DNA of 64,000 nt from Mycobacterium pseudokansasii (GTDB lineage: Bacteria > Actinomycetota > Actinomycetes > Mycobacteriales > Mycobacteriaceae), in assembly GCF_900566075.1 (NCBI RefSeq), contig NZ_UPHU01000001.1:930001-994000 (forward strand), in the 5' to 3' direction. A program made the position numbers and the translations under genes. The notes under the pieces are model-generated. The model was given only the letters and a program-made list of their open reading frames with translations. It searched no databases and was not told the origin of the DNA. Positions 171 through 21,142 of the stretch are shown here, one piece after another (position 1 is the first letter of the stretch; the number at the start of each line of letters is the position of its first letter).

Positions 171-366
171 GATGGCTCCTGGCCTTGCTGGTGGTGAATG
201 ATGGGAAACCGCGGCCTGTTTGCCGCATTGACGAACTCATCCGGTGGTGCCCCGCTGACCGCCCGACGCCGCCAGGGGCTCGGGAAAGCCGTTGGCGTCC
301 AAAGCCGGTGACACTGCTGACGTACCCGCCCGCCCTGCGGCGGCCCCGTCGGCACCGAACATGTTG

Positions 367-1164: not shown

Positions 1165-1322
1165 AACCTCGCCCGCTTTCTTGCCGAGGCCGGAAATCCG
1201 GACTACGCCGCTGGTGTTTCCGGGTAGTCGAACGCATATACATCTCGGGCCCAAATGTCTTTCCGATCACGTCAGTCCGGTCATACCGGACCAACGCGAA
1301 ATGCCGATCTGCCTGTTTGCCG

Positions 1323-1988
1323 TTAGTTGTCAGGGTTATACGGGTCGCCTGCCGCATATGCAGCTGCATAGTCGAGATCCGATTGCTCTTCACTACTAGG
1401 GTCGTCAGGGCGGTATTCGTTGTTGTTCGCTTGCCATTGCGCGACGGTATTTGTGCCTGAACTGTCGTCGTCGGATTCGCTCGAGCTGTAGTAGTCGTAG
1501 TCGTCATACCCGCCTGCTGCGCCGGTGCTGGACGTAACTTGCGGCCCCGCCGGCTGAGCGTTACCCGGGATCACATTTGTCTGAGTATCTGCGGGAGGCT
1601 CATTGGCCCCGCCGGAACTGCTGGTTGCCGTGGTGCTGTCTTGGGTAGGAGCCGTCGTGTCATTCGAATTGCTCGACGTGCCGCCGCTGAGGCTGCTACC
1701 GGAAGTGTCGTTGGTGTTGCTGGTGCAGCTGTCGAGCTTGAAGCCGCCGTGGGAGGCCAGCGTGATGGTAAGCCGCCCCACATCGACGCCGAGACCGTTG
1801 GCGGTGGTCGGGCTTGAGGCGTCGACGATGCCGGCGATGCCGCTGGTCAGTGCCAGCGCTCCCAGCGTGGCGCCGGCCGCAAGCCTGCCTCGCCGCGACT
1901 TGGCGGTCCCGGCTTTGGGTTGAGCCGAACCAGATTCGGCATCGTCGGCGGTGTTTTCAGGTCTCGCGCTACGGGTCGGTCTGGGCAT
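1323..1988 (-). CDS. Putative exported Ser/Thr/Asp-rich low-complexity protein
   Basis: About 221 residues starting at the ATG at 1988, which has a GAAAGGA ribosome site about ten bases upstream; a more upstream ATG in frame lacks this. A basic N-terminus with SRRGRLAAG is followed by a hydrophobic stretch (ATLGALALTSGIAGIV, about residues 35-50), which looks like a signal peptide or membrane anchor. The remainder is low-complexity: Ser/Thr/Asn/Gly-rich linker sequence, one Cys, then a YDDYDYY and SSSESDDDSS acidic tract near the C-terminus. No enzymatic domain is recognisable. The composition suggests an exported, extended cell-envelope protein. Function unknown. Confidence 0.6.
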   Translation of the reverse strand: MPRPTRSARPENTADDAESGSAQPKAGTAKSRRGRLAAGATLGALALTSGIAGIVDASSPTTANGLGVDVGRLTITLASHGGFKLDSCTSNTNDTSGSSLSGGTSSNSNDTTAPTQDSTTATSSSGGANEPPADTQTNVIPGNAQPAGPQVTSSTGAAGGYDDYDYYSSSESDDDSSGTNTVAQWQANNNEYRPDDPSSEEQSDLDYAAAYAAGDPYNPDN

Positions 1989-2726
1989 GGGCGGATGGTC
2001 CTTTCGGCGATGCGGGGTCAAACGATGTCTTCGATGTGCCATTCACGGTGTCGCCAGTGTGTTCACCCCAGACCGGTGGCGGGGGGGCGTCAACGCTGCT
2101 GCAGCGACACCGGCGCCATAGCCTGGCCGGTAGGCACCGGCGCGAGCCCGGATTTGGCCGGCACTTTCGGCGGTCGCCTCGGCGGGCTGTAAATCATTGC
2201 TGTTCAACACCGTTGAGGCAGCAACGAGACCGAGGCAGCAACCATCGCCGAAATCCCCGGGGCCGGTGTACGCCGCTACCGGCGGCGCGTTCAACCACTT
2301 CACCGATGCCGTCGCGTCCGCTGGGTCTACGGCAACCACCCACAGCGTCACTGCCGACATCCCTTCGGATCGCTTGATACTGCGCGCCTGTGTTGACTCC
2401 CTCGTCGCCCAGCGGCGCCTGTATGTATCTTGTATTGAAATCTATACATCTGTATCGGACAGAGTTGCAGAAGTCAACTTTGTAATCAATCCAGGCGGGA
2501 TGCGATCATGACGCACCTTCGACGGTCTCGGCATCGGCAGGCGGCGCGGCATGCCGAGGAGGCTCGGCCTTACGACGGCTGCGGATCGAGAACGGTGCCG
2601 GCGTTGGGCCGCTCGGGCCTGACGCTGGTTCGGCGGAGCGTGCGGCGGCTTATGCGTCTATCCGGCTATGCATGCTTATCGGGCAGTCGCCAAGGAAGAT
2701 GCGCACCGGTGCATGGTCCCGGGGAA
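1989..2726. other. 738 bp without a convincing gene; AT-rich inverted repeat
   Basis: The open frames here lack recognisable coding character. The only local signal is an AT-rich patch around 2420-2460 that holds a perfect inverted repeat ATACA-TC-TGTAT (2444-2455), the kind of small palindrome a dimeric regulator could bind. No gene it would control can be named. Confidence 0.35.
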
Positions 2727-4846
2727 CTAGTCGTCGCCATCCGCCAAGCGCTCGTTCAGGAATCCTTCGACCGCGGGGCTCGCGATGACGGACTGGGCGC
2801 CGTCTTCGGCCTGACGCATCCACCGATGTTTCGTGTGCTCCACGACGACAGTGTGCACAGGGTCGGTCCCGATGAGCATGCCTCGGGTCAGCAGGAACCG
2901 CCCATGTTGGCGGGCTTCCCGTCGGGTGGCGCGCCGCAGCGTGGCGCACGCAGGGCATAGCCAGAGTTCTTCTTTCGGCTTATTCACGCATCGCTGACAG
3001 ATCGGCGTTGCGCAACAGTCACACGAGACCATGCCGCGCAGGCACACCGGGCAGATTCTGCCGCCACAGTAACTGCATCGGGACGCATCGGGCCCAAAGT
3101 GGCCTTCCCGGTCGATGACACCATGGTCTCTGGGAAGCGTTGTGGTGCTGTCCATTCGGCGTGCATCGGTTGCGCCAGGCCTGAGGTTCGCTTGGTGCCC
3201 CCAGACCTGGCCATCCGCTACCGTGACCGCCTCGTCGACCACGAGGTCGGCGCGGGACTCGGCGAGAACGTCACCTGGGGCATGGTCGGTCTTCACCCAG
3301 TTGGCGATGAGCGCGTGGTTCACCGACACCACACCTGGTGTCTTGTCGAGACCGTTGAGCTGCTGGGTCAGCGGACACACCTGTGCCCAAACGCATTTCG
3401 TCCGTTCACAACCGCCGGCGTTGGTGCGTAGCCGCGCCCGGGTGCGCGCATAGCGGGTGTCCCGACGGCGGATGACGTCGTCGGTGACGTCGTCCCAGGT
3501 TCCGGTCGGGGATGCGGCGATGGCACGCAGCGCGACGGCCAGGGCGAGCGGGGAGGATTCGCGGTCCGACAGCGCATCTTCGAGCTCGCGCGTGCACACG
3601 TAGTTGCCGACGCCTTGGATCTGCCGGAATGGTGCCCCCAGTAGCCCGTCGGTGTAAAGACGCGTTGCTTCGTCGCGCAATTGGCTCTGCAGCGCTTTGG
3701 TTACGGTCGCGATGACGACCGGTTGAGCCGGTCGCGAGGCGCGTCCAAGGGCCGGCAACAAATAGGCCAGCGATTTGCCGGTCCCGGTGGGAGCCTCGAC
3801 CGCAAAGCGTCCCCCGTGATCGAATACGTCGGCGACGGCGCGCGCCATCTGCTGTTGCGCTTCGCGCGGGAGGAGTTGATGCCGGGCTTGCAGGACCGCG
3901 AAGGCGTCGCGTGCGGCCGAGAACGCGTCGGCAGCCGGTGAACCCGACGGGATCAGCAGCGGATCTGGCGGGCGAGTCGACGTGGACAGCTCGGGGGTTG
4001 CGGTCAGCCCGGGCAGCAACGACACGAGCGGATGATCGAAGGCCTCGAGGACACCGATGGCGAGCTGCCAGCTGGGCTCTTCCACATCGATTGCGTCCAG
4101 CATCGCCCGAACGACCCCGGCCGTCGCGGTCGCGTCCGCCAGGGCGCGGTGGGGCTCCTGGTGATCGATGTTGAATTGGTGCGTCAGATCCGCCAGGGAC
4201 CGGTTGGGCATCGCTGCGTCGAAAAGGGTTGCGAGATGCAGGCTGTCGACACACGACGGAAGGTGCGGGGGATCGATGCCGGCGCGCTCGGCCGCCTTGT
4301 GCAGGAGCGGCCGGTCGAATTCCAGTAGGTTGTGGCCGATCACGAGGTCGATCTCGGCCAGGTGGGCCTCGAGTAACCGCAGCGCGTCGTCGAGGGGGAA
4401 TTCCGCGCCGAGACTCTCGTTCGGCCGCGCCACACCGGCTGGCAATTGGACCATGATGTTCGCAAGTGGCGTGCCGTCTAACCCAACCAAAGCGAGTTCG
4501 CAGACGAAGTCTGCGGCAGAGTCGAGCCCGGTGGTCTCGATGTCGAGGACCGCGATACGGTCGGCCGCGGCGCGGCGAATGTTCGTGGGTCGGTACCCGT
4601 CGGTGTTCTCGTTGATATCTTCCGACTCGGGCGACGGTCACCGGGGGCTCAGCGGACCTGATGGACAGCGTGCCGTCTGAAAGCGCTGCGGAAAGCGATC
4701 GGCGAGTTGGGAGAGGCTCTCGATCGACTTGGCGAAGCCCTGCGAGCGTAGAGCCCCGTCAGATCTGCCGCGGACAGCGGTCCGTGCTCCGCAAGAATCC
4801 GGTAGGCGGCCTCGATCGCCGGGGGCGGCGGCTTTTGAGAAGTCAT
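2727..4846 (-). pseudogene. Decayed DnaQ-type 3'-5' exonuclease / DinG-type helicase gene
   Basis: Read on the complement, an ATG at 4846 begins MTSQKPPPPAIEAAYRILAE, but the frame is lost around 4745. Fragments in other frames (GFAKSIESLSQLADRFPQRF, then VLDIETTGLDSAADF) show the original N-terminus led into a DEDD exonuclease domain whose first motif, DIETTGLD, lies at about 4521-4550. The main frame (open 4637-2727) has no ATG or GTG before that motif. It continues with exonuclease motifs (VIGHNLLEFDRP, HRALADATAT), then a Walker A APTGTGKSLAY and a helicase core. At the DEAH box the sequence reads VVDEAV, and it runs into a Cys-rich segment with repeated CxxC pairs instead of the remaining helicase motifs. 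This indicates frameshifts at the 5' end and a deletion or fusion in the second half. It lies downstream of a second broken helicase. Confidence 0.7.
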
Positions 4847-5013
4847 CGGCGGCACGCCCATGGGTCCACGTATCCACGTTGAAAGTCCAGTGGCAGCACC
4901 GCTCCGGAGTCGTTGGCGGGGCGGACCGGGCTGCGAACTAAGCTATGCAACCTCGCGGACATGCAGGATCTCCCGTGGCCGCCTCGGCCGTATGTCGTCA
5001 CCCGCTAACGTGA

Positions 5014-7518
5014 CTACCGCGAACCGAGACCCGACAAGTAAAGGTCGGCGCCAGTGCCCGCGACGTTTTTGGGCCGGCTGCCGGGATACGCTGTGCCACT
5101 GTACGTTCCGGATTCGTCGGTGATCGCCCACGGATCTTTCAGCCACTCCCGGCTGGCACGCCTGATCGCATCGAACTTCTCCTCACTGAGGAATTCGGTT
5201 TCGATGCAGAGGTTTCGGCGCAGTTCGTCGAGCAGCACGTGCATCAACTGCCGGCGAACCTTGGGATCTGCGCTGACTAATGGGCCGCCTCTTGCAGCAC
5301 ACTTGGTGTCGTCATCTGCGAGCTGATCCAAACCGAAGTAATCGAGCCGCAATTGGCCGGTTTGCTCGAGGTTGGGCATGGTGATGCGCCATCCGCGGGC
5401 GAGGTCGCGCCACAGTCGATAGGTGACGACATCGCGCAGCGCGCGGGCGATCTTCTTGCGCGGCACGAGCTCGTCGGCGGTGTCCTCGTCGCGTGCGAAG
5501 CGCTTGAGGTTGTTACCGCCAAGCGCGGAAACCACTTCGGGCCCCAGGTTCTCGTCGGTGAGTGGCCCGTCGCCATGGTTGAGGGCGGCCCGGTAGAGTG
5601 CGGATCGAATCAACGCGACGATGACGAAGTCGTTGAAGTGTCCGGCCTGCAGACTCGCATCCTGACGGTTGTCGCTGAACGCCAGGAACTTCCGCGCTTC
5701 GGCATCGAGATCGGTCTCGTCGCGCAGGGCACGCACGACTGATTGCGACAGCACCGTCACCGCGCTGGCCCGGCCCTCGGTACCAAGGCTGGCCACGCGG
5801 GAGAACTCCGACTGCCGGGCGCTCTCGTAGCTCGTCTTGCACGAGGGGCAGAAGTCAAGCCGTTCGAAGATCGCAACGGGCATTCCGTCGTCGGTGATGC
5901 TGCCAAAAGGGTCGACGCGCAGCGATACCGGGAGCTTGTTGAGGCGCGCGGGATCAAGGGCTTGGCCCGCACCGGCAGACACCGCCCAGTCGTCGGGCAC
6001 CAGCTCCAGAAGTGCGGGGTCCGCCGGATCGGGCCATGGTTGGTCAGTGACGTAGAGCAGCCCGGTCGCGTCGGGTTGCTCATCGATGCCTGCGTGCAGG
6101 ATACGTGGACTGAAACTCTTGCGGCCGCGATCGAGGTTGACCACCAAGAACTCCTGGCCGCATTCCCGGCAGAAGGCCAGTGGAAATAACGGTTGACCCG
6201 CCGGCCGCTCGGGTGCGCTTCGTTGGTATTGCGTTGTCAGGTAACGGCTTTCCGCCGGCTCCAGCGTGGTGTAGACGGTGTCGCCCTTGCCGATGAACTG
6301 GTGCAGCTTGAACGCGAACAGCGAACGACCCTGGGGATCGCGGGCTCGCGACCCCGCCAGCAAGAGTTTCCGGAGTTTGTCACGACATATCTGTTCGTCG
6401 ACGCCCGTCGCGATGTGTAGCTTTGCCGCCGCCTCGCTCAACTTGCTCGGTGGGCGACGGCTGAGCTTTCCCTCGTCGTCTTCGCGCAGCCCGAACTCGT
6501 CCTCGGCCCACACGGCCAGCGGATCGGTCCGCAAGTCTTCCCAAGTATCCGGGGTCGACGCTGGCAGCCGCGCGGTGAGCGCAGCCGTATCGACGTGGCC
6601 GGACGTCGCCCGTCGCAGCGTCTCGCCGACCACGTTGGCGGCCGGGATCTTGACACCGAAGATTCGGGTGGCCAGGTCGGCGACCTGCTGGCGCTGCTCG
6701 GCCTTGGTGCCCGGACCGGCAAGGGTCGCGCTGGTGCCGATGCACTGCAGCTTTTCAGCGTTGATCGCGCTGCGCAGCCGGCGCACCAGCATCGCAACGT
6801 CGGCGCCCGGGCGCCCGCGATAGGTGTGCAGCTCGTCGAGGACCAGGAACGACAGGTTCCCGGCACTGGAGATCAGCGCCTTACGCTCACGTGGCCGGGT
6901 GAGCATCAGCTCGAGCATCACGTAGTTGGTCAGCAAAATGTCCGGAGGCGATGCCAGGATCGTCTCGCGTTCGCTCGATGTCTCCTGCCCGGTGTAGCGG
7001 GCGAACGTCACCTTGTGGTTCGCGGTACCGAGGAACTTCTCCAGTTCGCTGCGCTGACTATTGGCCAGCGCGTTCATCGGGTAGACGACAATGGCTCGTA
7101 CACCTTTGCCCGATCCTTCGTGCAGCACCCGGTTCACGATGGGCACGATGTACGACATCGATTTGCCCGAGCCGGTGCCAGTGGTCAGGACGTACGATTC
7201 GCCGCGGTTGGCGATCTCGAAGGCGTCGGTTTGGTGCCGATGGAAGGTGACTTCCCGGCCGATAGCGTCGTCGTCGGCCTTGATGCGGAAGATCTCGCGA
7301 GCGTGGGGATGCAGCACTCTCCGTTCGACCAGCTCGCCGACCGACCCCCCGGGTCGAAAGCGGGGTTGAGCGCCAACCATGGCTCGGGCCACAGCAGGCC
7401 GTCCTCGATCTCGCCCTCGACCTTGGCCCGGATCTGCTCGTCCTTGATGTCAAGGAAGCCCTTCACGAAGGACTCGTAGTCGTTCAGGACTTCGTCAAGG
7501 ACACCGAACGCGTCCATG
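5014..7518 (-). pseudogene. Decayed large DEAD/DEAH-box helicase (DUF1998-type) gene
   Basis: The gene starts at the ATG at 7518 (MDAFGVLDEVLNDYESFVKG). It shifts frame at the six-G run at 7345-7350 (complement), where adding one G would join NPAFDPGG to SVGELVERRVLHPHAREIF. Downstream, about 780 residues remain open with Walker A TTGTGSGKSMSY, the DExH-like box LVLDELHTYRG, motif III-like GTSATLA and a CxEC pair. These are features of very large superfamily 2 helicases that carry a DUF1998 C-terminal region. The frame stops at 5014 just after LYLSG, well short of the 1500 or more residues usual for the family, so both a frameshift and a 3' truncation are present. Known relatives occur in DNA repair and in phage-defence loci; this copy is probably inactive. 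It lies upstream of the decayed exonuclease-helicase, same strand. Confidence 0.7.
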
Positions 7519-7945
7519 ACACCTCCCGTTAGGAAGCTGGTACCGACCCGGAGGCGACCATACTTCGGGTGTGCGACAAATTTGGCACGTTGTTCACATT
7601 TTCCGAAGCGATCGGTGACGGACCACGCGCGTGGGCGCCACCAAGCCATGCGGTGTCTGTGGCGGCAGCTCGCGGTCCGAGAACGGGATAAAGGTTTGCA
7701 CGTCGGCAACGTTTGGCCCGAATAGACGTCGCCCAGGCCAACAGGCTAGCCGAGCGTGCCGCGGCCTTCGGCGCTGGGCCGCATCGTCGCCGGAAGCCTG
7801 CGCAGCGCTCAACCGGTGTGCGACTCAGCGACCCGAAGATCTCAATCTCCGAGTCTCTGTCGACATCGGTGAGAGCTTCGACCGGAGCTGACAAATGGTT
7901 TCGTCGACGGCGCACCGCGAGCCTTCGCGAGTGACGCGACACCAC
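7519..7945. other. About 430 bp without a recognisable gene
   Basis: This is the divergent region between the helicase relic (minus strand) and vapB (plus strand). Open frames on both strands are Arg-rich shadows with no start signal or recognisable motif. I see no tRNA, terminator or repeat in it apart from the vapB promoter-proximal repeats described separately. Confidence 0.4.
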
Positions 7946-7976
7946 GGTACCATCAGACAGGTAGAAAGGTACCAAC
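7946..7976 (+). promoter_or_regulatory. Candidate vapBC operator and ribosome site
   Basis: Two identical palindromic GGTACC hexamers sit at 7946-7951 and 7968-7973, 22 bases apart, which is close to two helix turns on the same DNA face. An AAAGG ribosome site overlaps the second copy just before the vapB ATG. VapB antitoxins normally autorepress by binding paired palindromes at this position. The role is inferred from position and symmetry. Confidence 0.4.
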
Positions 7977-8222
7977 ATGGCGTTGAACATCAAAGATGCG
8001 TCGGTCCATGAAGCGGTCAGGCAGATCGCCGCGATCACGGGCGAGTCTCAGGCTCAGGCGGTGGCGACGGCGGTGCAAGAGCGGCTGTCCCGGCTGCAGA
8101 GGGACGATCTGGCCGCCCGGCTCCTGGCCATCGGCCACAAGACCGCCAGCCGGATGAACCCGGAGAACAAGCCGCTGGACCATGCTGCACTGCTCTACGA
8201 CGAGCGAGGGCTACCGGCGTGA
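7977..8222 (+). CDS. VapB-family antitoxin (VapB30-like)
   Basis: An 81-residue protein beginning [20 protein letters not shown], typical of the small VapB/Rv0623 group in which an N-terminal ribbon-helix-helix segment binds DNA and the C-terminal tail blocks the toxin. The motif [20 protein letters not shown] matches the conserved helix of this group. Its TGA overlaps the vapC GTG start by four bases, giving translational coupling. The position next to the FIST gene matches the place of vapBC30 in M. tuberculosis, as far as I recall that order. It neutralises the adjacent PIN-domain ribonuclease and probably represses the pair through the GGTACC repeats upstream. Confidence 0.85.
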
Positions 8223-8617
8223 TCGTGGACACGTCGGCGATCATTGCGATCCTCACCGAAGAGGACGACGCCGCCCGCTACGCCAACGCAATCGCCGCCG
8301 CGGATGTGAGAAGGCTTTCTGCGGCAAGCTATCTCGAATGCGGGATTGTCCTGGATTCCCTACGTGACCCGATCATCAGCAGGAGTTTGGACGAGCTGCT
8401 CGAGGAAGCCCGGTTCGTGGTCGAGCCGGTGGCCGAACGGCAGGCCCGGCTTGCGCGTCAGGCCTACGCAGATTTCGGCAAAGGCAGTGGCCACCCGGCC
8501 GGTTTGAACTTCGGCGATTGCCTGTCGTATGCACTGGCCGTAGACCTACGCGAGCCACTGTTGTGGAAAGGCAATGACTTTGGGCATACCGACGTCCGAT
8601 CCGCGCTGCCGGAATGA
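8219..8617 (+). CDS. VapC PIN-domain ribonuclease toxin (VapC30-like)
   Basis: A 132-residue protein from a GTG start that overlaps vapB. The PIN-domain acidic residues are visible: Asp in [11 protein letters not shown] near the N-terminus, Glu in [13 protein letters not shown] in the first third, and the Asp pair in [12 protein letters not shown] followed by [10 protein letters not shown] near the C-terminus. VapC toxins cleave specific RNAs in a magnesium-dependent way and stop growth when the labile VapB is degraded. Length and all acidic motifs are intact, so the module should be functional. The RNA target cannot be told from sequence. Confidence 0.9.
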
Positions 8618-8668
8618 GCCCGCCGGCAGCCCGTGTCAGCTGTGACACCAGTGACGAACCCCGCGCAG

Positions 8669-9820
8669 TCAGTCGACAAACAGCGCCAACGACGCCGTGT
8701 AGCCGTGCAGGGCGTTGCGGCCGAAAACCGGGCCGATCTCCCCGGCAGCGAAGAAACCGGCCAGCGGAATCCCGCCCAGCAGATCCTCGATCGTCGACGC
8801 GTCGTGGTCGGCCACCCCGAACATCCGCCGTCCCCGCCCGTTGCAGGTGAACAGCAGCGCGCCCGCCGGACGCCCACCCAGCTCCGCTGCCGCCCGCTCC
8901 ACGGCCAGGTGCAGGTCCTTGTCCGCCGACGCGGCGTCTCGGACCTGGAACTGCACCGTGGTGCCGACCTCGACAACCTCGCCGATCTCGATCACCCCGG
9001 TCGAAGGATCGGCGCCCAGCAGCCCGCGGATCAGGAAGTCGCCCTGCCCCGGAGCCGCCAGGTGCTCGTCAACCACGATGCCGATCTGCAGGCCACGGCT
9101 GACCAGCTCCTGCTCGTGCAACGGCAGCCCCTCGACACTCTCGCGCAGGCGGTGCAGCGGCGGGCGCCCGCCCAGCTCGGTGATCACCGCGCCGTCCGCG
9201 CCGGTGACGATGTAGGGACGGCCGATCGGTCGGCAGCCCTGCGACACGATCGGGATGCTGCGCACACCGGGCAGGCGCACCCCGACGAGCCCGGAATTGA
9301 ACACGCCGCGGTCACGGAACAGCCGGGTGCCGCCCGGTCCACGTCCTCCGCTCGCCAGGCCGCCCACCACGGTCGTTCCCGGCAGGTCGCTGTTGAGGTG
9401 CTCGATGAGCAGACTCGACGGGAATGTGTACGGGTCCGGCAACAGCAGATGCAGATCGTGTGCGGACCGGTCGAACCGGTAACCGGTGAGCAATCCGCCC
9501 GAGCCGGTGCGGACGAAGTCCAGTTGGAACGTTTCGGCGGCCAGACCCGACGCCAGCCACACCGCCACCGCCGGCTGGTCCTCGATCTCATGGCGGCCGG
9601 CGACAACCGCCTGGGCGACACAGCCGATCAGCGGGGGCGAGCCGACGATGCGCTGCACCGCGGTGAGGACGTCTCCCGCCTGATCGGAGTGCGACCGCGA
9701 ACCGAGCAGCACGGCCAATGACGGCGCCTCTCCGGCGAGCTCGTCGCACGCCTGCGTGGCCGCCTCCACCGCCGCCTTCCGCGCATCGGGCGCGGTGGAG
9801 AATCCGACTCCGATCCGCAC
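8669..9820 (-). CDS. FIST-domain protein (Rv0628c-like)
   Basis: 383 residues from the GTG at 9820 ([16 protein letters not shown]), the same length I recall for M. tuberculosis Rv0628c. An N-terminal FIST domain is followed by a FIST_C domain with [12 protein letters not shown] and a terminal [19 protein letters not shown], the family's characteristic end. FIST proteins are thought to be intracellular small-ligand sensors (for example amino acids), often tied to signal transduction, but the ligand is unknown. No DNA-binding or kinase domain is attached. The gene stands alone, head to head with no close partner. In M. tuberculosis the next gene in this direction is recD; here 24 kb of accessory DNA intervenes. 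Confidence 0.85.
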
Positions 9821-12763: not shown

Positions 12764-13720
12764 ATGGCCAGGACCGCCAGAACAGACAACGACAGCTGGG
12801 AGATCACCGAGAGCGTGGGCGCGACGGCGCTGGGTGTGGCAGCGGCGCGCGCGGCCGAAACCCAGAGCGAGCACCCGCTGATCCGCGATCCGTTCGCCCG
12901 GGTCTTCCTCGACGCGGCCGGCGACGGCGTGTGGAACTGGTATTCGGCGCCGCAGCTACCCGCCGAGGTTCTCCAAGCCGAACCCGAGGTGCCGCTGCGA
13001 ATGCAGGCCATGATCAACTATATGGCCTGCCGCACGGCGTTTTTCGACACCTTCTTCCTCGACGCGACCCGGTCGGGTATCCGTCAGGCGGTGATTCTGG
13101 CCGCCGGCCTGGACGCGCGGTGCTGGCGGTTGCCGTGGCCCGACGGCACCACGGTCTACGAACTCGACCAGCCCAAGGTGCTGGAGTTCAAAACGGCGAC
13201 GCTACGTGAGCACGGGGCCGAGCCGACCTGTCATCGAGTCGGCGTCCCGGTGGACCTGCGTCAAGACTGGCCGAAGGCGTTGCGGCAGGCCGGTTTCGAC
13301 GTGTCGGCGCCGAGCGCATGGTCAGCCGAGGGGCTCATGCCGTATCTGCCGGCGGCTGCACAGGACTTGCTGTTCAACCGCGTTCAAGAGCTCGCGGTCA
13401 GCGGTAGCCGGATCGCTGTCGAGGCGCTGGGCCCCGACTTTCTGGATCCCGCCTTCCGCGCCAAGCGGCGCGAGCGGATGGACCGTGTCCGAGCACTGAT
13501 GGTCAAGGTCGACCCGCGGCGCGAGGTGCCCAGTACCGACGAGCTGTGGTACTTCGAGGAGCGCGACGACGTCGGCGACTGGTTGCGCCGCCACGGCTGG
13601 GAGGTGACGGTGACGCCGTCGGCGCAACTGATGGCCGGCTACGACCGCAACCCGCCGAAGGAGGTCCAAGACAGCGCGCCGCGGAATCTGTTCGTGTCTG
13701 CGGTGCGGGCCGGCGCCTAG
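12764..13720 (+). CDS. Putative S-adenosylmethionine-dependent methyltransferase (TIGR00027/LCM type)
   Basis: 318 residues with the signature of the large mycobacterial leucine-carboxyl-methyltransferase-like family: N-terminal [20 protein letters not shown], then [27 protein letters not shown] (SAM site), [13 protein letters not shown] and [12 protein letters not shown]. An AGGAAGTGA-type site precedes the ATG. These proteins are related to polyketide O-methyltransferases and protein phosphatase methyltransferases; most mycobacterial paralogues have no known substrate. Length and motifs are complete. It precedes narK by 80 bp but is probably not part of the nitrate operon, since narK has its own ribosome site and no functional link is known. 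Confidence 0.85.
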
Positions 13721-13803
13721 CGTAATCCGTACCGGGCCGCCGCCGGACCGCCGATTACTTCTGTTTGGTTTCCAATCGGTTGATGAGGTGATTGGGTATA
13801 GCC

Positions 13804-15024
13804 GTGGATACGGCGAGTACGCCGGATATCGGCGCACAGCGGAATGCGAACTTGGCCCTGGCGACCTGGGTCTCGACCGTCAACTTCTGGGCATGGAACA
13901 TGATCGGCCCGCTGTCAACCACCTATGCCGAGCAGATGCGGCTGTCGAGCGCGAAAGCCTCGCTGCTCGTGGCGACGCCGATTCTGGTCGGCGCGCTGGG
14001 CCGCATCGTGATCGGTTCGCTGACCGACCGGTTCGGCGGGCGCGCGATGTTCATTGCGATCTCGCTGGCGCCGATCGCGCCGGTGCTGGCGGTGGGCCTT
14101 GCCGGGAAGTACGGTTCCTATCCGTTGCTGTTGGTGTTCGGGTTCTTCCTCGGGATCGCGGGCACGGTTTTTGCCGTCGGGATCCCGTTCGCCAACGCGT
14201 GGTATCCGGCCGCCCGCCGTGGGTTCGCCACCGGAGTGTTCGGCATGGGCATGGTGGGCACCGCGTTGTCGGCGTTCTTCACACCACGATTCGTGCGCTG
14301 GTTCGGCCTGTTCACCACTCACGTCATCATCGCCGCTGCGCTGGCGCTCACCGCTGCGGCGTGCGTGCTGGTCATGCGTAACTCGCCGGACTTCACACCG
14401 AACACCGGTCCGGTGCTGCCGAAGCTGGCCGCCGCCGCAAAGCTGCGGGTGACGTGGGAGATGTCGTTCCTGTACGCCATCGTGTTCGGTGGTTTCGTCG
14501 CGTTTGCCAACTACCTGCCCACCTATATCAAGACGATCTACGGATTCTCCGCGGTCGACGCGGGCGCCCGTACGGCCGGTTTTGCGGTGGCCGCCGTGGT
14601 GGCCAGGCCGGTCGGCGGCGCGCTGGCCGACCGCTTCGCACCCAAGTACGTCGTCCTCGCGTCGCTGGCCGGCACTGCGGCGCTGGCGTCGATCGCGACG
14701 TTGAAGCCGCCGCCGGATGTGTTCTCGGCGCTGACGTTCATCACGCTGGCAATCTTCCTGGGAGCCGGTACCGGCGGCGTGATCGCCTGGGTTGCCCGCC
14801 GCTCGCCCGCCCAATCCGTCGGCACGATCACCGGCATCGTCGCCGCCGCTGGCGGGCTGGGCGGTTACTTCCCGCCGATGGTGATGGGCGCCACCTACGA
14901 CCCCGTCGAAAACGACTACACGGTCGGGCTGGCGCTGTTGGTCGCGACCGCCCTGGTGGCACTGGCATACACCGCGCTGGGATTGCATGCCGACGAACCC
15001 GAACGCAGGGAGGCGACTACGTGA
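13804..15024 (+). CDS. narK: NarK-family nitrate/nitrite transporter
   Basis: About 406 residues with twelve hydrophobic segments of the major facilitator superfamily. Motifs typical of nitrate/nitrite porters are present: the glycine-rich IGSLTDRFGGR loop, GFATGVFGMGMVGTALSAF, and AGGLGGYFPPMVMG in the eleventh segment. A TTG at 13792 directly abuts the AGGTGA site at 13786-13791, so the GTG at 13804 is the better start. The stop overlaps the narG GTG by four bases, so the two are translated together. The protein would import nitrate or exchange it for nitrite across the inner membrane to feed the NarGHI reductase. Annotated as narK; which mycobacterial paralogue (narK1, K2 or K3) is closest cannot be decided without alignment. 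Confidence 0.88.
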   Translation: MDTASTPDIGAQRNANLALATWVSTVNFWAWNMIGPLSTTYAEQMRLSSAKASLLVATPILVGALGRIVIGSLTDRFGGRAMFIAISLAPIAPVLAVGLAGKYGSYPLLLVFGFFLGIAGTVFAVGIPFANAWYPAARRGFATGVFGMGMVGTALSAFFTPRFVRWFGLFTTHVIIAAALALTAAACVLVMRNSPDFTPNTGPVLPKLAAAAKLRVTWEMSFLYAIVFGGFVAFANYLPTYIKTIYGFSAVDAGARTAGFAVAAVVARPVGGALADRFAPKYVVLASLAGTAALASIATLKPPPDVFSALTFITLAIFLGAGTGGVIAWVARRSPAQSVGTITGIVAAAGGLGGYFPPMVMGATYDPVENDYTVGLALLVATALVALAYTALGLHADEPERREATT

Positions 15025-18000
15025 GCAACCCGCCCGGGGGCCGCATCGAAGAACTCCTCGAGCGCACCGGAAGGTTCTTCACGCCGGGGCAGTTCTCCGC
15101 CGATCTGCGCACCGTCACCCGGGAGGGCGGGCGCGAAGGCGACGTCTTCTACCGCGACCGGTGGAGTCACGACAAAGTCGTGCGCTCCACCCACGGCGTC
15201 AACTGCACCGGGTCCTGCTCGTGGAAGATCTACGTCAAAGACGGGATCATCACCTGGGAGAACCAGGAGACCGATTATCCGTCCGTCGGCCCCGACCGCC
15301 CGGAATACGAGCCTCGCGGCTGTCCCCGTGGTGCCGCGTTCTCGTGGTACACCTATTCGCCGACCCGAGTGCGTCACCCCTATGCCCGCGGGGTGCTGGT
15401 CGAAATGTACCGGGAAGCCAAGGCGCGCTTGACCGATCCGGTGCTGGCGTGGGCCGACGTGGTGTCCGACCCCGACCGGCGCCGCCGATACCAGCGGGCG
15501 CGCGGCAAAGGTGGGCTGATGCGCATCACCTGGGCCGAGGCCACCGAGATGATCGCCGCGGCGCACGTGCACACCATCAAAACCTACGGCCCCGACCGCA
15601 TCGCCGGCTTCTCGCCGATCCCGGCGATGTCGATGGTCAGCCACGCGGCCGGCTCCCGCTTCGTGGAGTTGATCGGCGGCGCCATGACGTCGTTCTACGA
15701 CTGGTACGCCGACCTTCCCGTGGCGGCGCCGCAGGTGTTCGGCGACCAGACCGATGTGCCGGAGTCCGGCGACTGGTGGGACGCCGCGTACCTGATCATG
15801 TGGGGCTCGAACGTGCCGGTCACCCGCACGCCCGACGCGCACTGGATGGCCGAGGTGCGTTACCGCGGCACCAAGGTGGTCACCGTCAGCCCCGACTACG
15901 CCGACAACACCAAGTTCGCCGACGAGTGGCTGCCCTGCGCGGCTGGCACCGACGGCGCACTGGCCATGGCCATGGGGCATGTCATTTTGTCGGAATGCTT
16001 CGTCACGCAACGGATTCCGTTCTTCGTCGACTATGTCCGCCGGTTCACCGACCTGCCGTTCCTGGTCAAGCTGGAAAGCCGCGGTGACGACCTGGTGCCG
16101 GGCAAGGTCCTCACCGCCGCCGACCTCGGCCACGACGTCGAGAACGCGGCGTTCAAACCGGTCTTGCTGGACGGCGCCACCGACCAGGCCGCGGTCCCGC
16201 ACGGATCACTCGGCTTCCGGTACGGCGACGACGGTGTGGGCAAGTGGAACCTCGACCTCGGCGACATCGTGCCGGCGCTGACCGTCGCGCACCGCAGCGC
16301 CGGCGAATCCGCGCGAATCATCCTGCCCCGCTTCGACACCGCCGACGGTCGCGGCGAGACCATGATTCGCGGCGTCCCGGTACGCCGCATCGGCGAGAAC
16401 CTGACCTGCACGGTGTTCGACCTGATGCTGGCCCAATACGGGGTGGCCCGGCCCGGGCTGCCCGGAGACTGGCCCACCGACTACGACGATGCGGCATATC
16501 CGTACACCCCGGCCTGGCAGGAGCCGATCACCGGGGTACCTGCCGACCAGGTGATTCGCGTGGCACGCGAATTCGCCCGTAGTGCAGAGGAATCCGGTGG
16601 CCGGTCGATGATCATCATGGGTGCGGGCATCTGCCAGTGGTTCCACGGCGACGCCACGTATCGGGCCGTGCTGGCGCTGCTGTTGCTCACTGGGTCGATG
16701 GGCCGCAACGGCGGGGGTTGGGCGCACTACGTCGGCCAGGAAAAGTGCCGCCCGGTCACGGGCTGGGCGACGATGGCGATGGCCACCGACTGGTCGCGGC
16801 CGCCGCGGCAGATGGCGGGCACGTCGTACTGGTACGTGCACACCGACCAGTGGCGCTACGACGGCTACCGAGCCGACGCGCTGGCCAGCCCCACCGGCCG
16901 CAGCCGGTTCACCGGCAAGCACACCATGGACGTGCTGGCCGCCGCGGTCGCGATGGGCTGGACGCCGTTCTACCCGCAGTTCAACCGCTCCAGCCTCGAC
17001 GTCGCCGACGAGGCGCGCGCGGCCGGGCGGGACATCGCCGACTACGTGGCCGAGCAACTCGCCACCGGCGCACTCAAACCGGCCCTGTCCGATCCCGACG
17101 ACCCGGCGAACTGGCCCCGGGTGCTCAACGTGTGGCGCGCCAACCTGCTCGGCTCGTCCAGTAAGGGCAACGAATACTTCCTTACGCACCTGCTCGGCAC
17201 GACGTCGAACCTGCAGGCAACGCCGGCACCAGAAGCGTTGCGGCCCAACGACATCGTGTGGCGCGACAACATCGGCGAAGGCAAACTCGACCTGCTGATG
17301 TCCATCGATTTCCGGATGACGTCCACGACATTGCTGTCCGACGTGGTGCTGCCGGCCGCCACCTGGTACGAGAAGGCCGACCTGTCCAGCACCGACATGC
17401 ACCCGTTCGTGCACGCATTCAGCCCCGCCATCGATCCGCCGTGGGAAACACGCTCCGACTACGAGGCGTTCGGTGCGATCGCGAGCGTTTTCTCGACGCT
17501 GGCGGCCAAGCATCTGGGCACCCGCGCCGATGTCGTGCTCGGCGCGCTGCAGCACGACACGCCCGGCGCGATGGCCTACCCGTCGGGCGTCGAATACGAC
17601 TGGCGCACAACAGGAGAGCTGCCTAAGCCCGGTAAGACGATGGGTACCATCGCGGTGGTCGAGCGGGACTACGCCGCCATTGCCGACAAGTGGGCCGCGC
17701 TGGGGCCGCTGACCGAACGGCTAGGGCTGACCACCAAAGGCGTCACCGTCTGGCCGGATCGCGAAGTCGACGAGCTCGCCGCCAAGTTCGGGGTGCTGAA
17801 CTCCGGGCCCGCCGCCGGGCGGCCGGCGATCACCACCGCCGAGCGGATGGCCGACGTGATCCTGGCGCTGTCGGGAACGAGCAACGGCCGTCTCGCGGTC
17901 GAGGGATTTCACGAACTGGAACGACGGACGGGGCGCCGGTTGGCGCATCTGGCCGAAGGCAGCGAGGAACGCCGCATCACCTATGCCGACGCCCAGGCTC

Positions 18001-18695
18001 GCCCAGTGCCGGTGATCACCAGCCCGGAGTGGTCCGGCAGCGAGACCGGCGGGCGCCGGTATGCACCGTTCACGGTGAACATCGAGGAGCTCAAGCCGTT
18101 TCACACGCTCACCGGCCGAATGCACTTCTACCTGGACCACGACTGGGTCGAAGAGCTCGGCGAGCAGCTGCCGATCTACCGTCCGCCGCTGGACATGTCG
18201 CGGCTTTTCGGTGAGCCGAGACTGGGCGGTGACGGCGCCGTACTGACCGTGCGGTATCTGACGCCACACTCGAAATGGTCGATCCACTCGGAGTATCAGG
18301 ACAACCTGCTCATGCTGTCGCTGTCGCGGGGCGGACCCACCATGTGGATGAGCGTTGACGATGCGGCCAAGATCGGCGTGCGCGACAACGATTGGGTGGA
18401 GGCGGTCAACCGCAACGGGGTGGTGGTGTGCCGAGCGATCGTCAGCCACCGGATGTCCGACGGCGTGGTATTCGTCTACCACGCCCAGGAGCGCACCATC
18501 GACACGCCGCTGACCGAGACTACCGGGCGTCGCGGTGGCATCCACAACTCGCTGACCCGGCTGCTGATCAAGCCCAGTCACCTGGCGGGCGGTTATGCGC
18601 AGAACGCGTACGCGTTCAACTACTTAGGTCCCACCGGCAACCAGCGCGACGAGGTGGCCGTGGTGCGTCGCCGCTCCCAGGAGGTGGTGTACTGA
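15021..18695 (+). CDS. narG: Respiratory nitrate reductase, alpha (catalytic) subunit
   Basis: 1224 residues, close to the roughly 1230 of mycobacterial NarG. The [4Fe-4S] FS0 ligands are intact near the N-terminus: His58, Cys62 and Cys66 in STHGVNCTGSCSWK with a later Cys in YEPRGCPRGAAF. The molybdenum-ligand Asp is in SFYDWYADLP, followed by GDQTDVPESGDWWD. The molybdopterin-binding repeats and the C-terminal domain (TGRMHFYLDHDWVE, GGYAQNAYAFNYLG) are all present. It reduces nitrate to nitrite at a bis-MGD cofactor on the cytoplasmic side, taking electrons from NarH. It starts at a GTG overlapping narK and ends overlapping narH by one base. The open frame reads further upstream through narK but that extension is not coding. 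Its dedicated chaperone NarJ is missing (see narJ remnant). Confidence 0.95.
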   Translation: MSNPPGGRIEELLERTGRFFTPGQFSADLRTVTREGGREGDVFYRDRWSHDKVVRSTHGVNCTGSCSWKIYVKDGIITWENQETDYPSVGPDRPEYEPRGCPRGAAFSWYTYSPTRVRHPYARGVLVEMYREAKARLTDPVLAWADVVSDPDRRRRYQRARGKGGLMRITWAEATEMIAAAHVHTIKTYGPDRIAGFSPIPAMSMVSHAAGSRFVELIGGAMTSFYDWYADLPVAAPQVFGDQTDVPESGDWWDAAYLIMWGSNVPVTRTPDAHWMAEVRYRGTKVVTVSPDYADNTKFADEWLPCAAGTDGALAMAMGHVILSECFVTQRIPFFVDYVRRFTDLPFLVKLESRGDDLVPGKVLTAADLGHDVENAAFKPVLLDGATDQAAVPHGSLGFRYGDDGVGKWNLDLGDIVPALTVAHRSAGESARIILPRFDTADGRGETMIRGVPVRRIGENLTCTVFDLMLAQYGVARPGLPGDWPTDYDDAAYPYTPAWQEPITGVPADQVIRVAREFARSAEESGGRSMIIMGAGICQWFHGDATYRAVLALLLLTGSMGRNGGGWAHYVGQEKCRPVTGWATMAMATDWSRPPRQMAGTSYWYVHTDQWRYDGYRADALASPTGRSRFTGKHTMDVLAAAVAMGWTPFYPQFNRSSLDVADEARAAGRDIADYVAEQLATGALKPALSDPDDPANWPRVLNVWRANLLGSSSKGNEYFLTHLLGTTSNLQATPAPEALRPNDIVWRDNIGEGKLDLLMSIDFRMTSTTLLSDVVLPAATWYEKADLSSTDMHPFVHAFSPAIDPPWETRSDYEAFGAIASVFSTLAAKHLGTRADVVLGALQHDTPGAMAYPSGVEYDWRTTGELPKPGKTMGTIAVVERDYAAIADKWAALGPLTERLGLTTKGVTVWPDREVDELAAKFGVLNSGPAAGRPAITTAERMADVILALSGTSNGRLAVEGFHELERRTGRRLAHLAEGSEERRITYADAQARPVPVITSPEWSGSETGGRRYAPFTVNIEELKPFHTLTGRMHFYLDHDWVEELGEQLPIYRPPLDMSRLFGEPRLGGDGAVLTVRYLTPHSKWSIHSEYQDNLLMLSLSRGGPTMWMSVDDAAKIGVRDNDWVEAVNRNGVVVCRAIVSHRMSDGVVFVYHAQERTIDTPLTETTGRRGGIHNSLTRLLIKPSHLAGGYAQNAYAFNYLGPTGNQRDEVAVVRRRSQEVVY

Positions 18696-20344
18696 TGAAA
18701 GTCATGGCGCAGCTGGCGATGGTGATGAACCTCGACAAATGCATCGGCTGCCACACCTGTTCGGTGACGTGTAAGCAGGCTTGGACCAACCGCGCGGGCA
18801 CCGAGTACGTCTGGTTCAACAATGTGGAAACCCGTCCAGGACAAGGCTATCCGCGCACCTATGAAGACCAGACGCGCTGGCGCGGGGGCTGGGAACGCGA
18901 TAGGCGCGGTCGACTGAGGCTGCGCGGCGGCGGGCGGCTGGCCAAGCTGCTGAAGATCTTCGCCAACCCGAAGATGCCCAGCCTGGGCGACTACTACGAG
19001 CCCTGGACGTACGACTACGAGAAGCTGATCACCGCCCCACTGGGCGAGCAGATGCCGGTGGCGCCGCCGCGCAGCCTGATCAGCGGCAAGCCGATGAAGG
19101 TGTCGTGGTCGGCGAACTGGGACGACGACCTTGGGGGCTCACCGGAAATCGTGCCCGGCGACCCGGTGCTGCGGCAGGTCAGCGAACGGGTGCGGTTGGA
19201 ACTCGAGCAGGCGTTCATGTTCTATCTGCCGCGGATCTGCGAGCACTGCCTGAACCCGTCGTGTGTGGCCTCCTGCCCGTCGGGCGCGATGTACAAACGC
19301 ACCGAGGACGGGATCGTGCTCGTCGACCAGGATCGCTGCCGCGGCTGGCGGATGTGTGTGTCGGGTTGCCCGTACAAGAAGGTGTACTTCAACCACAAGA
19401 CCGGTAAGGCGGAGAAGTGCACGATGTGCTATCCGCGCATCGAAGTGGGCCTGCCGACGGTGTGCTCGGAAACGTGCGTCGGACGGCTACGTTACCTCGG
19501 GTTGGTGCTCTACGACGTCGACCGGGTGCTGGAAGCCGCGTCGGTGGAGCGCGACGCCGACCTCTACCATGCTCACCGGCGAATCCTGTTGAACCCCAAC
19601 GACCCCGACGTCATCGCCGGTGCCCGCGCCGAGGGGATCCCCGACGAATGGATCGAGGCCGCCCAGCGCTCCCCGGTCTACGCGCTGATCAACACCTACC
19701 GGGTGGCGCTTCCGCTGCATCCGGAATTTCGCACGGTACCGATGGTTTGGTACATTCCGCCGCTGTCTCCGGTCGTCGACGCCATCGGCCGCGACGGGCA
19801 CGACGGCGAGGACCTCGGCAATTTGTTCGGAGCCCTGGGGGCACTGCGCATTCCGATCGAGTACCTCGCGGGGCTGTTCACCGCCGGCGACACCACCGTG
19901 GTGGAATCCGTACTGCGCAGGCTGGCGGCGATGCGTTCCTATATGCGCGATATCAACCTCGGCCGGCCGACGCAGCCGCACATCCCGGAATCGGTCGGCA
20001 TGACCGAAGAGCAGATCTACCAGATGTACCGGCTGCTTGCATTGGCGAAATACGAAGAGCGGTACGTGATCCCGACCGCATACGAGCTGGACGGCGACGC
20101 GGTCGAGGAAGCCGGGTGCTCGTTGTCCTTCGACGGCGGTCCCGGAATGTACGGCTCCGGGCCGTTCGGCGAGGCCAGCGGAGGACCGGTGCCGGTGGCG
20201 GTCGAGACGTTCCACGCGTTGCGGCAACGGCAGACCAGTGAAGGGATGGCCGCCAACGCCAATCAGCCGTCGCGGGTCAACCTCCTCAACTGGGACGGTC
20301 GCGGGGTGCCACCCGGAATGTTCCCGCGTGGGCGGCGGCGATGA
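18695..20344 (+). CDS. narH: Respiratory nitrate reductase, beta (iron-sulfur) subunit
   Basis: 549 residues, the usual length. Four Cys clusters are seen in order: CIGCHTCSVTC (residues 16-26), CEHCLNPSCVASCP, CRGWRMCVSGCP and CTMCYP followed by CSETC. The Trp in CRGWRMC marks the site that holds the [3Fe-4S] centre, as in E. coli NarH. The subunit carries electrons from the NarI hemes to NarG. The ATG overlaps the narG stop (TGATG) and the stop overlaps the ATG of the narJ remnant (ATGA), so the gene order and coupling of narGHJI were kept even though narJ itself is gone. No defect is visible in NarH. Confidence 0.95.
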   Translation: MKVMAQLAMVMNLDKCIGCHTCSVTCKQAWTNRAGTEYVWFNNVETRPGQGYPRTYEDQTRWRGGWERDRRGRLRLRGGGRLAKLLKIFANPKMPSLGDYYEPWTYDYEKLITAPLGEQMPVAPPRSLISGKPMKVSWSANWDDDLGGSPEIVPGDPVLRQVSERVRLELEQAFMFYLPRICEHCLNPSCVASCPSGAMYKRTEDGIVLVDQDRCRGWRMCVSGCPYKKVYFNHKTGKAEKCTMCYPRIEVGLPTVCSETCVGRLRYLGLVLYDVDRVLEAASVERDADLYHAHRRILLNPNDPDVIAGARAEGIPDEWIEAAQRSPVYALINTYRVALPLHPEFRTVPMVWYIPPLSPVVDAIGRDGHDGEDLGNLFGALGALRIPIEYLAGLFTAGDTTVVESVLRRLAAMRSYMRDINLGRPTQPHIPESVGMTEEQIYQMYRLLALAKYEERYVIPTAYELDGDAVEEAGCSLSFDGGPGMYGSGPFGEASGGPVPVAVETFHALRQRQTSEGMAANANQPSRVNLLNWDGRGVPPGMFPRGRRR

Positions 20345-20412
20345 GGACGCTGCGACCGTTTGCGTCGAGAGATGTGAGAATTGCGCCGCGACGCAACTCC
20401 GGAGGTGAATGA
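20341..20412 (+). pseudogene. narJ: narJ remnant (chaperone gene deleted)
   Basis: At the place where narJ always lies, an ATG overlapping the narH stop opens a frame of only 23 codons (MRTLRPFASRDVRIA..., ending NSGGE). Mycobacterial NarJ is about 200 residues. The coupling signals on both sides survive: the ATGA overlap with narH, and a GGAGGTGA ribosome site for narI inside the relic. The simplest reading is an internal deletion of roughly 530 bp fusing the first codons of narJ to its last ones. NarJ is the chaperone that holds NarG for molybdenum cofactor insertion and membrane assembly; it is not part of the final enzyme. Identity of the relic is inferred from position, not from sequence similarity. 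Confidence 0.7.
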
Positions 20413-20413
20413 G

Positions 20414-21142
20414 GTGCTCGGCAAGACGTTCTGGGATGTGGTGCCCTACGTGGTACTCGCGATCGTCGCCGTTGGCACCTGGTGGCGGTACCGATATGAC
20501 AAGTTCGGGTGGACCACCCGCTCGTCGCAGCTTTACGAGGTGCGGTTGCTGCGTATCGCGAGCCCGCTCTTCCATTACGGCATCCTGGTGGTGATCGTCG
20601 GACACGTCATCGGCCTGCTGATCCCGGAATCATGGACGGACGCAGCCCGGGTGAGTCATCACGCCTACCACGTCCAGGCTGTTGTGCTGGGGTCGATAGC
20701 CGGGGTCACCACGCTGACGGGGCTGGCGCTGCTGATCTACCGGCGACGCAGCCGCGGACCGGTGTTCATGGCCACCACGGTCAACGACAAGCTGATGTAT
20801 GTGTTCCTGGTGGGGGCGATATCGGCGGGGCTGTACGCGACCGCGTTGGGCTCGGGGATGTTCGGCGAGTCGTACAACTACCGCGAAACCGTCTCGGTGT
20901 GGTTCCGGTCCATCTGGGTGCTGCAACCTCGCGGCGAACTGATGGCGCTGGCGCCGCTGTACTACCAGCTGCATGTGATGATCGCGCTGGCGCTGTTTGC
21001 CATGTGGCCGTTCACCCGGCTGGTTCACGCGTTCAGCGCACCGGTCGCGTATCTGTTCCGGCCCTACGTCGTCTACCGCAGCCGCGGCGTCGCCGCGCGC
21101 AAGGAGCTGGTCGGGTCGCATCTTCAGCGTCGCGGCCGCTGA
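20414..21142 (+). CDS. narI: Respiratory nitrate reductase, gamma (cytochrome b) subunit
   Basis: About 242 residues from the GTG at 20414, which has a strong GGAGGTGA site six bases upstream. The frame opens earlier (20381) but that part belongs to the narJ relic. Five hydrophobic segments and conserved His residues typical of NarI are visible: LFHYGILVVIVGHVIGL near the N-terminus, SHHAYHVQAV, and LHVMIALALFAMWPFTRLVHAFS near the C-terminus, which supply the two b-heme ligands. The motif TWWRYRYDKFGWTTRSSQLY is typical of mycobacterial NarI. It anchors NarGH and oxidises menaquinol. Its end overlaps the tail of the convergent TVP38 gene by 19 bp. Confidence 0.93.
   Translation: MLGKTFWDVVPYVVLAIVAVGTWWRYRYDKFGWTTRSSQLYEVRLLRIASPLFHYGILVVIVGHVIGLLIPESWTDAARVSHHAYHVQAVVLGSIAGVTTLTGLALLIYRRRSRGPVFMATTVNDKLMYVFLVGAISAGLYATALGSGMFGESYNYRETVSVWFRSIWVLQPRGELMALAPLYYQLHVMIALALFAMWPFTRLVHAFSAPVAYLFRPYVVYRSRGVAARKELVGSHLQRRGR

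What the first reader, a model, noticed from the sequence alone, without database searches (positions are those of the whole stretch)
20341..20412. Nitrate reductase operon with narJ deleted but coupling signals kept
narG, narH and narI are complete, yet the NarJ gene is only 23 codons long. The ATGA overlap with narH and the GGAGGTGA site for narI are both present in the relic, so the deletion left translation of narI intact. NarJ is needed for cofactor insertion into NarG in other bacteria (established). Either the enzyme is inactive, or another chaperone (for example from a second nar locus or narX) supplies the function.
Basis: partly seen in the sequence, partly recalled or inferred. Interest (0 to 1): 0.75.

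Follow-up and report, generated by a model that had tools for sequence, protein, structure and literature searches.

The report
Nitrate reductase operon lacking its chaperone
In the Mycobacterium kansasii group one of several nitrate-respiration gene sets has lost the helper gene that normally loads its metal cofactor, yet its enzyme genes still look maintained by selection, so a helper from another copy probably does the job.

Summary
The window carries narK-narG-narH-[23-codon remnant]-narI. The remnant is what a near-complete narJ deletion leaves: its 3' part matches the narJ end of the nearest narJ-bearing relative found (0 of 2000 shuffles reach the score); its 5' end is supported only by position. 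It is not an assembly error: M. persicum, M. ostraviense and M. attenuatum lack narJ at the same spot, and M. innocens has lost more. Of 80 named loci, 76 have a NarJ match; the 4 without are these species.
The genome holds two further narGHJI operons with narJ (nar2, nar3); no narX-type fusion was found. NarJ2 is present in all five species examined. NarG1's N-terminus, the recognised NarJ-binding region, is 39/45 identical to NarG2's. In the three species with an otherwise complete locus, pooled narGHI dN/dS (0.08-0.11) is as low as in nar2 (0.07-0.14), though narI1 alone is somewhat higher. So the enzyme is probably still made and matured by NarJ2 in trans, but dispensable: M. ostraviense and M. 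innocens broke it, and innocens MK13 is scored nitrate-positive. This is inference; no activity was measured.

The parts
13792..15024 (+). narK-type MFS nitrate/nitrite transporter (TTG start assumed), first gene of the unit
   Evidence: TIGR00886 E 4e-50, below that model's cut-off; PF07690
15021..18695 (+). narG (NarG1), complete, GTG start
   Evidence: TIGR01580 above cut-off; the H..C..C FS0 motif and the residues around the active site align with E. coli NarG 1q16 (alignment cut off near residue 960)
18695..20344 (+). narH, complete (ATG 18695; a GTG at 18689 is also possible)
   Evidence: TIGR01660 above cut-off; positions
20341..20412 (+). narJ remnant: about 4 codons of the 5' end (by position only) and about 19 of the 3' end, still in frame here
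20401..20408 (+). GGAGGTGA ribosome-binding site for narI, inside the remnant
   Evidence: read; present in all 4 remnants aligned
20414..21142 (+). narI, complete, GTG start
   Evidence: TIGR00351 above cut-off; four histidines line up with those of E. coli NarI (that they are the haem ligands is recalled)
12764..13720 (+). flanking SAM-dependent methyltransferase; marks the same locus in 4 sister species
   Evidence: TIGR00027; found beside nar1 in L006 (cut by the locus end), L133, L134, L135
21877..23370 (-). flanking amidohydrolase (Xaa-Pro dipeptidase-like); same locus marker
   Evidence: NF051886, below cut-off; found in L006, L133, L134, L135

Best explanation
An ancestor of the M. kansasii complex carried more than one nar operon. 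An internal deletion removed nearly all of narJ from one of them (nar1), leaving the start overlap with narH and the ribosome-binding site of narI, so NarG1, NarH1 and NarI1 can still be translated (shown: sequence). The loss was tolerated because the chaperone encoded by nar2 (NarJ2) recognises the nearly identical N-terminus of NarG1 and loads its iron-sulfur cluster and molybdenum cofactor in trans (inferred). The enzyme therefore stayed useful and under purifying selection in the window's species, M. persicum and M. attenuatum (selection shown; activity not), but is partly redundant, and M. ostraviense and M. innocens went on to break it.
For: Same narJ-less junction in 4 species, larger loss in a fifth. 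NarJ2 present in 5 of 5 species, NarJ3 found in 3 of 5. NarG1 residues 6-50: 39 of 45 identical to NarG2, 22 of 40 to NarG3; the NarJ of G105's matching operon is 68% identical to NarJ2, as close as to NarJ of four other loci (62-70%), and 42% to NarJ3. Pooled narGHI dN/dS for nar1 0.079, 0.093, 0.108 (window-persicum, window-attenuatum, persicum-attenuatum) against 0.084, 0.139, 0.068 for nar2; next to the remnant (last 200 codons of narH plus narI) window-persicum dN 0.013, dS 0.175, while the remnant itself differs at 6 of 41 sites. Precedent: Paracoccus NarJ matures both NarG and NasC (PMC6618116, abstract and Discussion read).
Against: No expression, interaction or activity data. Two of five species have broken the locus. 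M. innocens MK13, in which most of narG is gone, is scored nitrate-positive (variable in another study), so the phenotype does not need nar1 (PMC6974680 Table 6). narI1 taken alone has higher dN/dS within the complex (0.10-0.20) than narI2 (0.03-0.18), though it is also high against narJ-bearing G105 (0.19-0.30). dS varies along the operon (window-attenuatum 0.04 to 0.38 per block), a sign of recombination, so part of the counted divergence may predate the narJ loss. The two short remnants share a gap that does not follow the nar2 distances, and the window-attenuatum remnants differ at only 2 of 41 sites although flanking dS is 0.33. dN/dS is Nei-Gojobori, without a likelihood test. NarJ is usually described as tied to its own operon (PMC4464133, passages), and Streptomyces NarJ1 as a private chaperone (PMC7931247, passage).
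Confidence: 0.6

Rival explanations
1. nar1 is a decaying operon: without narJ the enzyme is inactive, and the remaining genes have simply not yet been lost.
For: narK and narH are frameshifted in M. ostraviense; narK is frameshifted and most of narG, much of narH and part of narI are missing in M. innocens; MK13 is scored nitrate-positive without nar1; narI1 dN/dS is somewhat raised.
Against: Pooled narGHI dN/dS 0.08-0.11 in the three species with an otherwise complete locus, about that of nar2, and 0.07-0.12 beside the remnant; no internal stop in narG, narH, narI or narK there.
Confidence: 0.28
2. The narJ loss is recent and was spread between species by recombination of the narH-narI segment, so the low dN/dS mostly reflects time before the loss.
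For: dS changes along the operon; window narI is closer to M. persicum (dS 0.13) and M. ostraviense (0.12) than to M. attenuatum (0.35), the reverse of nar2 narI (0.36, 0.30, 0.07).
Against: The remnants differ between species at 2 to 7 sites of 41-73 and in length, for window-persicum about as much as nearby synonymous sites (6 of 41; dS 0.175); all 4 junctions lack narJ.
Confidence: 0.09
3. NarG1 is matured without any NarJ, through changes in NarG1/NarH1 or another chaperone family.
For: None directly; only that the genes are maintained.
Against: The N-terminal NarJ-binding region is little changed relative to NarG1 of the narJ-bearing G105; NarJ2 is present in every species examined. In E. 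[quoted passage not shown]
Confidence: 0.03

Closest known systems
narK-narGHJI operon of other Mycobacterium, Rhodococcus and Nocardia
   Same: Gene order, narH-narJ overlap, narI ribosome-binding site; NarG1 92% and NarI1 85% identical to G105
   Different: 76 of 80 named loci have a NarJ match, and in 74 of the 78 with both narH and narI the two lie 652-775 bases apart; this locus and its sister-species copies have neither
Paracoccus denitrificans NarJ serving NasC in trans (PMC6618116)
   Same: A molybdoenzyme without a chaperone gene of its own served by NarJ from the nar operon
   Different: There the client is an assimilatory enzyme whose cluster has no chaperone gene; here the client is a NarG whose own narJ was deleted; trans service here is inferred only
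E. coli NarJ / NarW pair
   Same: Two paralogous nar operons; [quoted passage not shown]
   Different: In E. coli each operon keeps its own chaperone gene
M. tuberculosis NarX (narG-narJ-narI fusion; make-up recalled)
   Same: A degenerate nar-derived locus in a related species
   Different: Both NarJ matches of this genome lie inside narGHJI operons; no fusion was found

Membership tests
Respiratory nitrate reductase NarGHI | NarG, NarH and NarI above curated cut-offs, in order | tested here: met
   TIGR01580, TIGR01660, TIGR00351 above cut-off
Respiratory nitrate reductase NarGHI | FS0 and catalytic-site residues of NarG, haem-ligand histidines of NarI | tested here: met
   Alignments with 1q16 and 3egw read by eye; residue roles partly recalled, partly from PMC10609526 and PMC6618116 passages
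narGHJI operon | narJ between narH and narI | tested here: not met
   23 codons remain and match no family; neither PF02613 match of the genome lies in the window
narGHJI operon | A NarJ supplied somewhere in the genome | tested here: met
   Two PF02613 matches above cut-off, both in narGHJI operons
narJ (for the remnant) | Similarity of the 3' end to narJ | tested here: met
   0 of 2000 shuffles against G105; weak or none against the more distant narJ of L017, L004, L010 (65, 516, 1749 of 2000)
narJ (for the remnant) | Similarity of the 5' end to narJ | tested here: inconclusive
   Position and ATGAGG only; DNA score not above shuffles for any of 4 narJ genes
Functional nitrate reductase | Enzyme activity and cofactor content | not testable with these tools
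   Only dN/dS and intact frames

The most novel reading that the evidence does not exclude
A natural gene-loss experiment shows that NarJ need not be private: one chaperone, NarJ2, matures two paralogous respiratory nitrate reductases (and perhaps links or limits their assembly), and this sharing has been stable across species of the M. kansasii complex.
Probability: 0.5. Interest if true: 0.5.

Novelty: new variant of a known kind. Interest (0 to 1): 0.38.

Why it matters
[quoted passage not shown] A clade that lost narJ but kept selecting narGHI would be evidence for chaperone sharing between paralogous molybdoenzymes, and gives a simple system to test how specific NarJ is. It also cautions that counting nar operons in this clade does not predict the routine nitrate test: MK13 is scored positive without nar1, and M. 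ostraviense 241/15 negative although its nar2 G, H, J and I and nar3 G and J read without stops.

Tried and rejected
Assembly error: rejected, the junction recurs in separately assembled species. Function of the 23-residue peptide: rejected, its length and frame differ among the four remnants; in M. persicum the remnant frame has no stop and runs in frame into narI. First alignment idea, that the middle of the remnant is the narJ 5' end ('LQDRL' region): rejected, the middle scores better against the 3' end for 65 of 81 narJ genes (6 the other way, 10 ties; ostraviense remnant) and for 48 of 81 (15 the other way, 18 ties; window) (81 of the 82 loci with a NarJ match gave a usable gene). narX as supplier: not found. 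Mobile element at the junction: the repeat search of 12.6-23.5 kb (20 of 26 direct-repeat families shown, 24 inverted pairs) showed no long repeat there; no transposase search was made. Species name: the first 20 kb of the 117 kb second contig found no near-identical plasmid. The iqtree codon runs gave tree lengths but I obtained no omega from them. A family-wide sample (401 genomes, E 1e-100) found, besides the window's own, one weaker match.

Wide narJ loss in the genus: Pfam counts gave NarI in 224 and NarJ in 207 of 396 genomes. Comparing the lists by eye, I rechecked 30 genomes: 12 with NarI and no NarJ, and 18 with more NarI than NarJ. Left out were six NarI-only genomes with weaker NarI matches (G075, G089, G115, G195, G239, G256), G305, and the five complex genomes already studied. 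A NarJ alignment matched in 30 of 30; in 29 it covers at least 171 of 219 positions (in G097 as two pieces in different frames; with one stop codon inside the match in G076 at both places and in one place each of G083 and G250, not looked into), in G066 only the last 35. NarI places without a NarJ match nearby: G117 C2 (in-frame stop), G331 C61 (partial), and short fragments in G188 and G318. So the Pfam NarJ model misses divergent NarJ, and a narJ-deleted but otherwise complete operon was seen only in this complex; genomes whose counts agreed were not inspected one by one.

Papers: 'Mycobacterium kansasii'+'narGHJI' 1 hit, 'narJ'+'kansasii' 3, 'kansasii'+'nitrate reductase'+'narG' 5, six phrases for absent narJ 4; the listings showed none on this loss, but most of these papers were not opened.

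Full report
What is there. The window (one stretch of a 6.43 Mb, two-contig genome) carries narK, narG, narH and narI in one direction. NarG, NarH and NarI each exceed the curated NCBIfam cut-off. Between the narH stop and the narI start lies a 23-codon ORF, 20341-20412, that begins with ATGA on the narH stop and holds GGAGGTGA five bases before the narI GTG. It matches no family.

Is it narJ? The closest narJ-bearing relative found is an unnamed 4.5 Mb Mycobacterium genome, G105, whose matching nar operon has a 214-codon narJ. The last 27 bases of the remnant score 44 against the end of that narJ; none of 2000 shuffles does as well. Against narJ of three more distant loci the score is reached by 516, 1749 and 65 of 2000 shuffles, and the 5' part fails against all four. 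The middle of the remnant fits the narJ 3' end that codes 'PF.L' (against G105, 2 of 2000 shuffles for the M. ostraviense remnant, 44 of 2000 for the window). The remnant is thus best read as about 4 codons of the narJ start, supported by position only, joined to about 19 codons of its end.

Whose is it? A scan of named species genomes with NarI gave 319 relatives, the best 80 kept. The nearest are M. persicum, M. ostraviense, M. attenuatum and, in part, M. innocens, so the window belongs to the M. kansasii complex; the species could not be named. Of the 80 loci, 76 have a NarJ match and 4 do not: these four species. In 74 of the 78 loci with both narH and narI matches the two lie 652-775 bases apart; the other 4 are again these. 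In M. persicum, M. ostraviense and M. attenuatum the same join lies between narH and narI, 41-42 or 74 bases long up to narI. The same methyltransferase and amidohydrolase flank the locus in all four (the VTT-type gene downstream was not found in M. attenuatum and is partial in M. innocens). In G105 these neighbours were not seen in the 12.5 kb fetched, so its operon may sit elsewhere.

Further fate. In M. ostraviense narK and narH are frameshifted; in M. innocens narK is frameshifted and most of narG, much of narH and the start of narI are gone. In the window, M. persicum and M. attenuatum narK, narG, narH and narI read without internal stops.

Other NarJ. The window's genome has two further operons with narJ, here called nar2 (NarG 79% identical) and nar3 (66%). 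NarJ2 is present in 5 of 5 complex species, NarJ3 was found in 3 of 5 (window, M. ostraviense, M. innocens); NarI counts agree, 3 in those three genomes and 2 in M. persicum and M. attenuatum. No NarX-type fusion was found. NarG1 residues 6-50 are identical to NarG2 at 39 of 45 sites and to NarG3 at 22 of 40; the NarJ of G105's matching operon is 68% identical to NarJ2 and 42% to NarJ3. In E. coli NarJ recognises the NarG N-terminus, with a second site on the core (PMC10609526, passages; PMC6618116 Discussion).

Selection. Pairwise Nei-Gojobori dN/dS pooled over narG, narH and narI is 0.079, 0.093 and 0.108 for nar1 and 0.084, 0.139 and 0.068 for nar2 in the same three species pairs. narG1 alone, M. 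ostraviense included, runs 0.084-0.134 against 0.075-0.132 for narG2 (M. ostraviense and M. innocens included). narI1 is higher than narI2, 0.10-0.20 against 0.03-0.18, but against narJ-bearing G105 it is 0.19-0.30 too, so this is not clearly a result of the loss. Beside the remnant the values stay low (window-persicum dN 0.013, dS 0.175; window-attenuatum 0.041, 0.330), while the remnant drifts (6 of 41 sites window-persicum, 7 of 73 window-ostraviense, but only 2 of 41 window-attenuatum). This argues that the subunits were still needed after narJ was lost. The reservation is recombination: dS varies strongly along the operon and gene by gene.

Phenotype. Table 6 of PMC6974680 scores the strains behind these loci: M. 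persicum AFPC-000227 nitrate-positive (1 of 8 persicum rows is negative), M. attenuatum MK41 and M. innocens MK13 positive (both variable in another study), M. ostraviense 241/15 negative. MK13 lacks a usable nar1, so nar1 is not needed for the test; 241/15 is negative though its nar2 G, H, J and I and nar3 G and J read open. The phenotype therefore neither proves nor disproves nar1 activity. PMC5720804 (passages) reports that M. kansasii dies under hypoxia and reduces nitrate better when given extra cofactor-synthesis genes, which shows cofactor supply matters there, not which Nar enzyme is used.

How rare? In 396 genus genomes Pfam finds NarI in 224 and NarJ in 207. I rechecked 30 genomes, chosen by eye for excess NarI, with a NarJ alignment: 30 of 30 match, 29 over at least 171 of 219 positions, though four of these show a frame break or a stop inside the match that I did not follow (G097, G076, G083, G250); in G066 only the last 35 positions match. 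An otherwise complete nar operon with narJ deleted was seen only in this complex; genomes whose counts already agreed were not inspected one by one.

Verdict. Most likely the enzyme is served by NarJ2 in trans and is partly redundant; the decaying-operon reading remains the main rival. It is a small, clean case of chaperone loss, of moderate interest.

Noticed in passing
L133 (M. innocens, G091 C235), about 6758-8837: narG is reduced to a short start and a short end, narH is joined to narI mid-gene and narK is frameshifted: serial internal deletions in the same operon.
   Followed up: partly
L006 (M. ostraviense), 283-6930: narK and narH frames are broken while narG and narI stay open; the species is scored nitrate-negative in PMC6974680 although nar2 reads open.
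   Followed up: partly
L005/L135 (M. persicum), just upstream of narI: The remnant frame has no stop and runs in frame into narI, so a 14-residue N-terminal extension of NarI is possible.
   Followed up: no
window 13792-21142 against L134, L135, L006: Synonymous distance changes along the nar1 operon (window-attenuatum 0.04 to 0.38 per block), suggesting recombination between species.
   Followed up: partly
L003 and L004 (own genome): The genome has three narGHI sets; nar3 carries a distant narK-like gene beside narI, and was not found in M. persicum or M. attenuatum.
   Followed up: partly
G066 C69:14547-15094: Another Mycobacterium genome with only the last 35 positions of NarJ and a partial NarI: possibly a second decaying nar locus.
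   Followed up: no
G117 C2:505124-505780: A NarI-like gene with an in-frame TGA and no NarJ match nearby, on the second contig of that genome.
   Followed up: no
G076, G083, G250, G097 (NarJ places): NarJ matches with a stop codon inside (G076, G083, G250) or split over two frames (G097): possible damaged narJ genes, or matches running past the stop.
   Followed up: no
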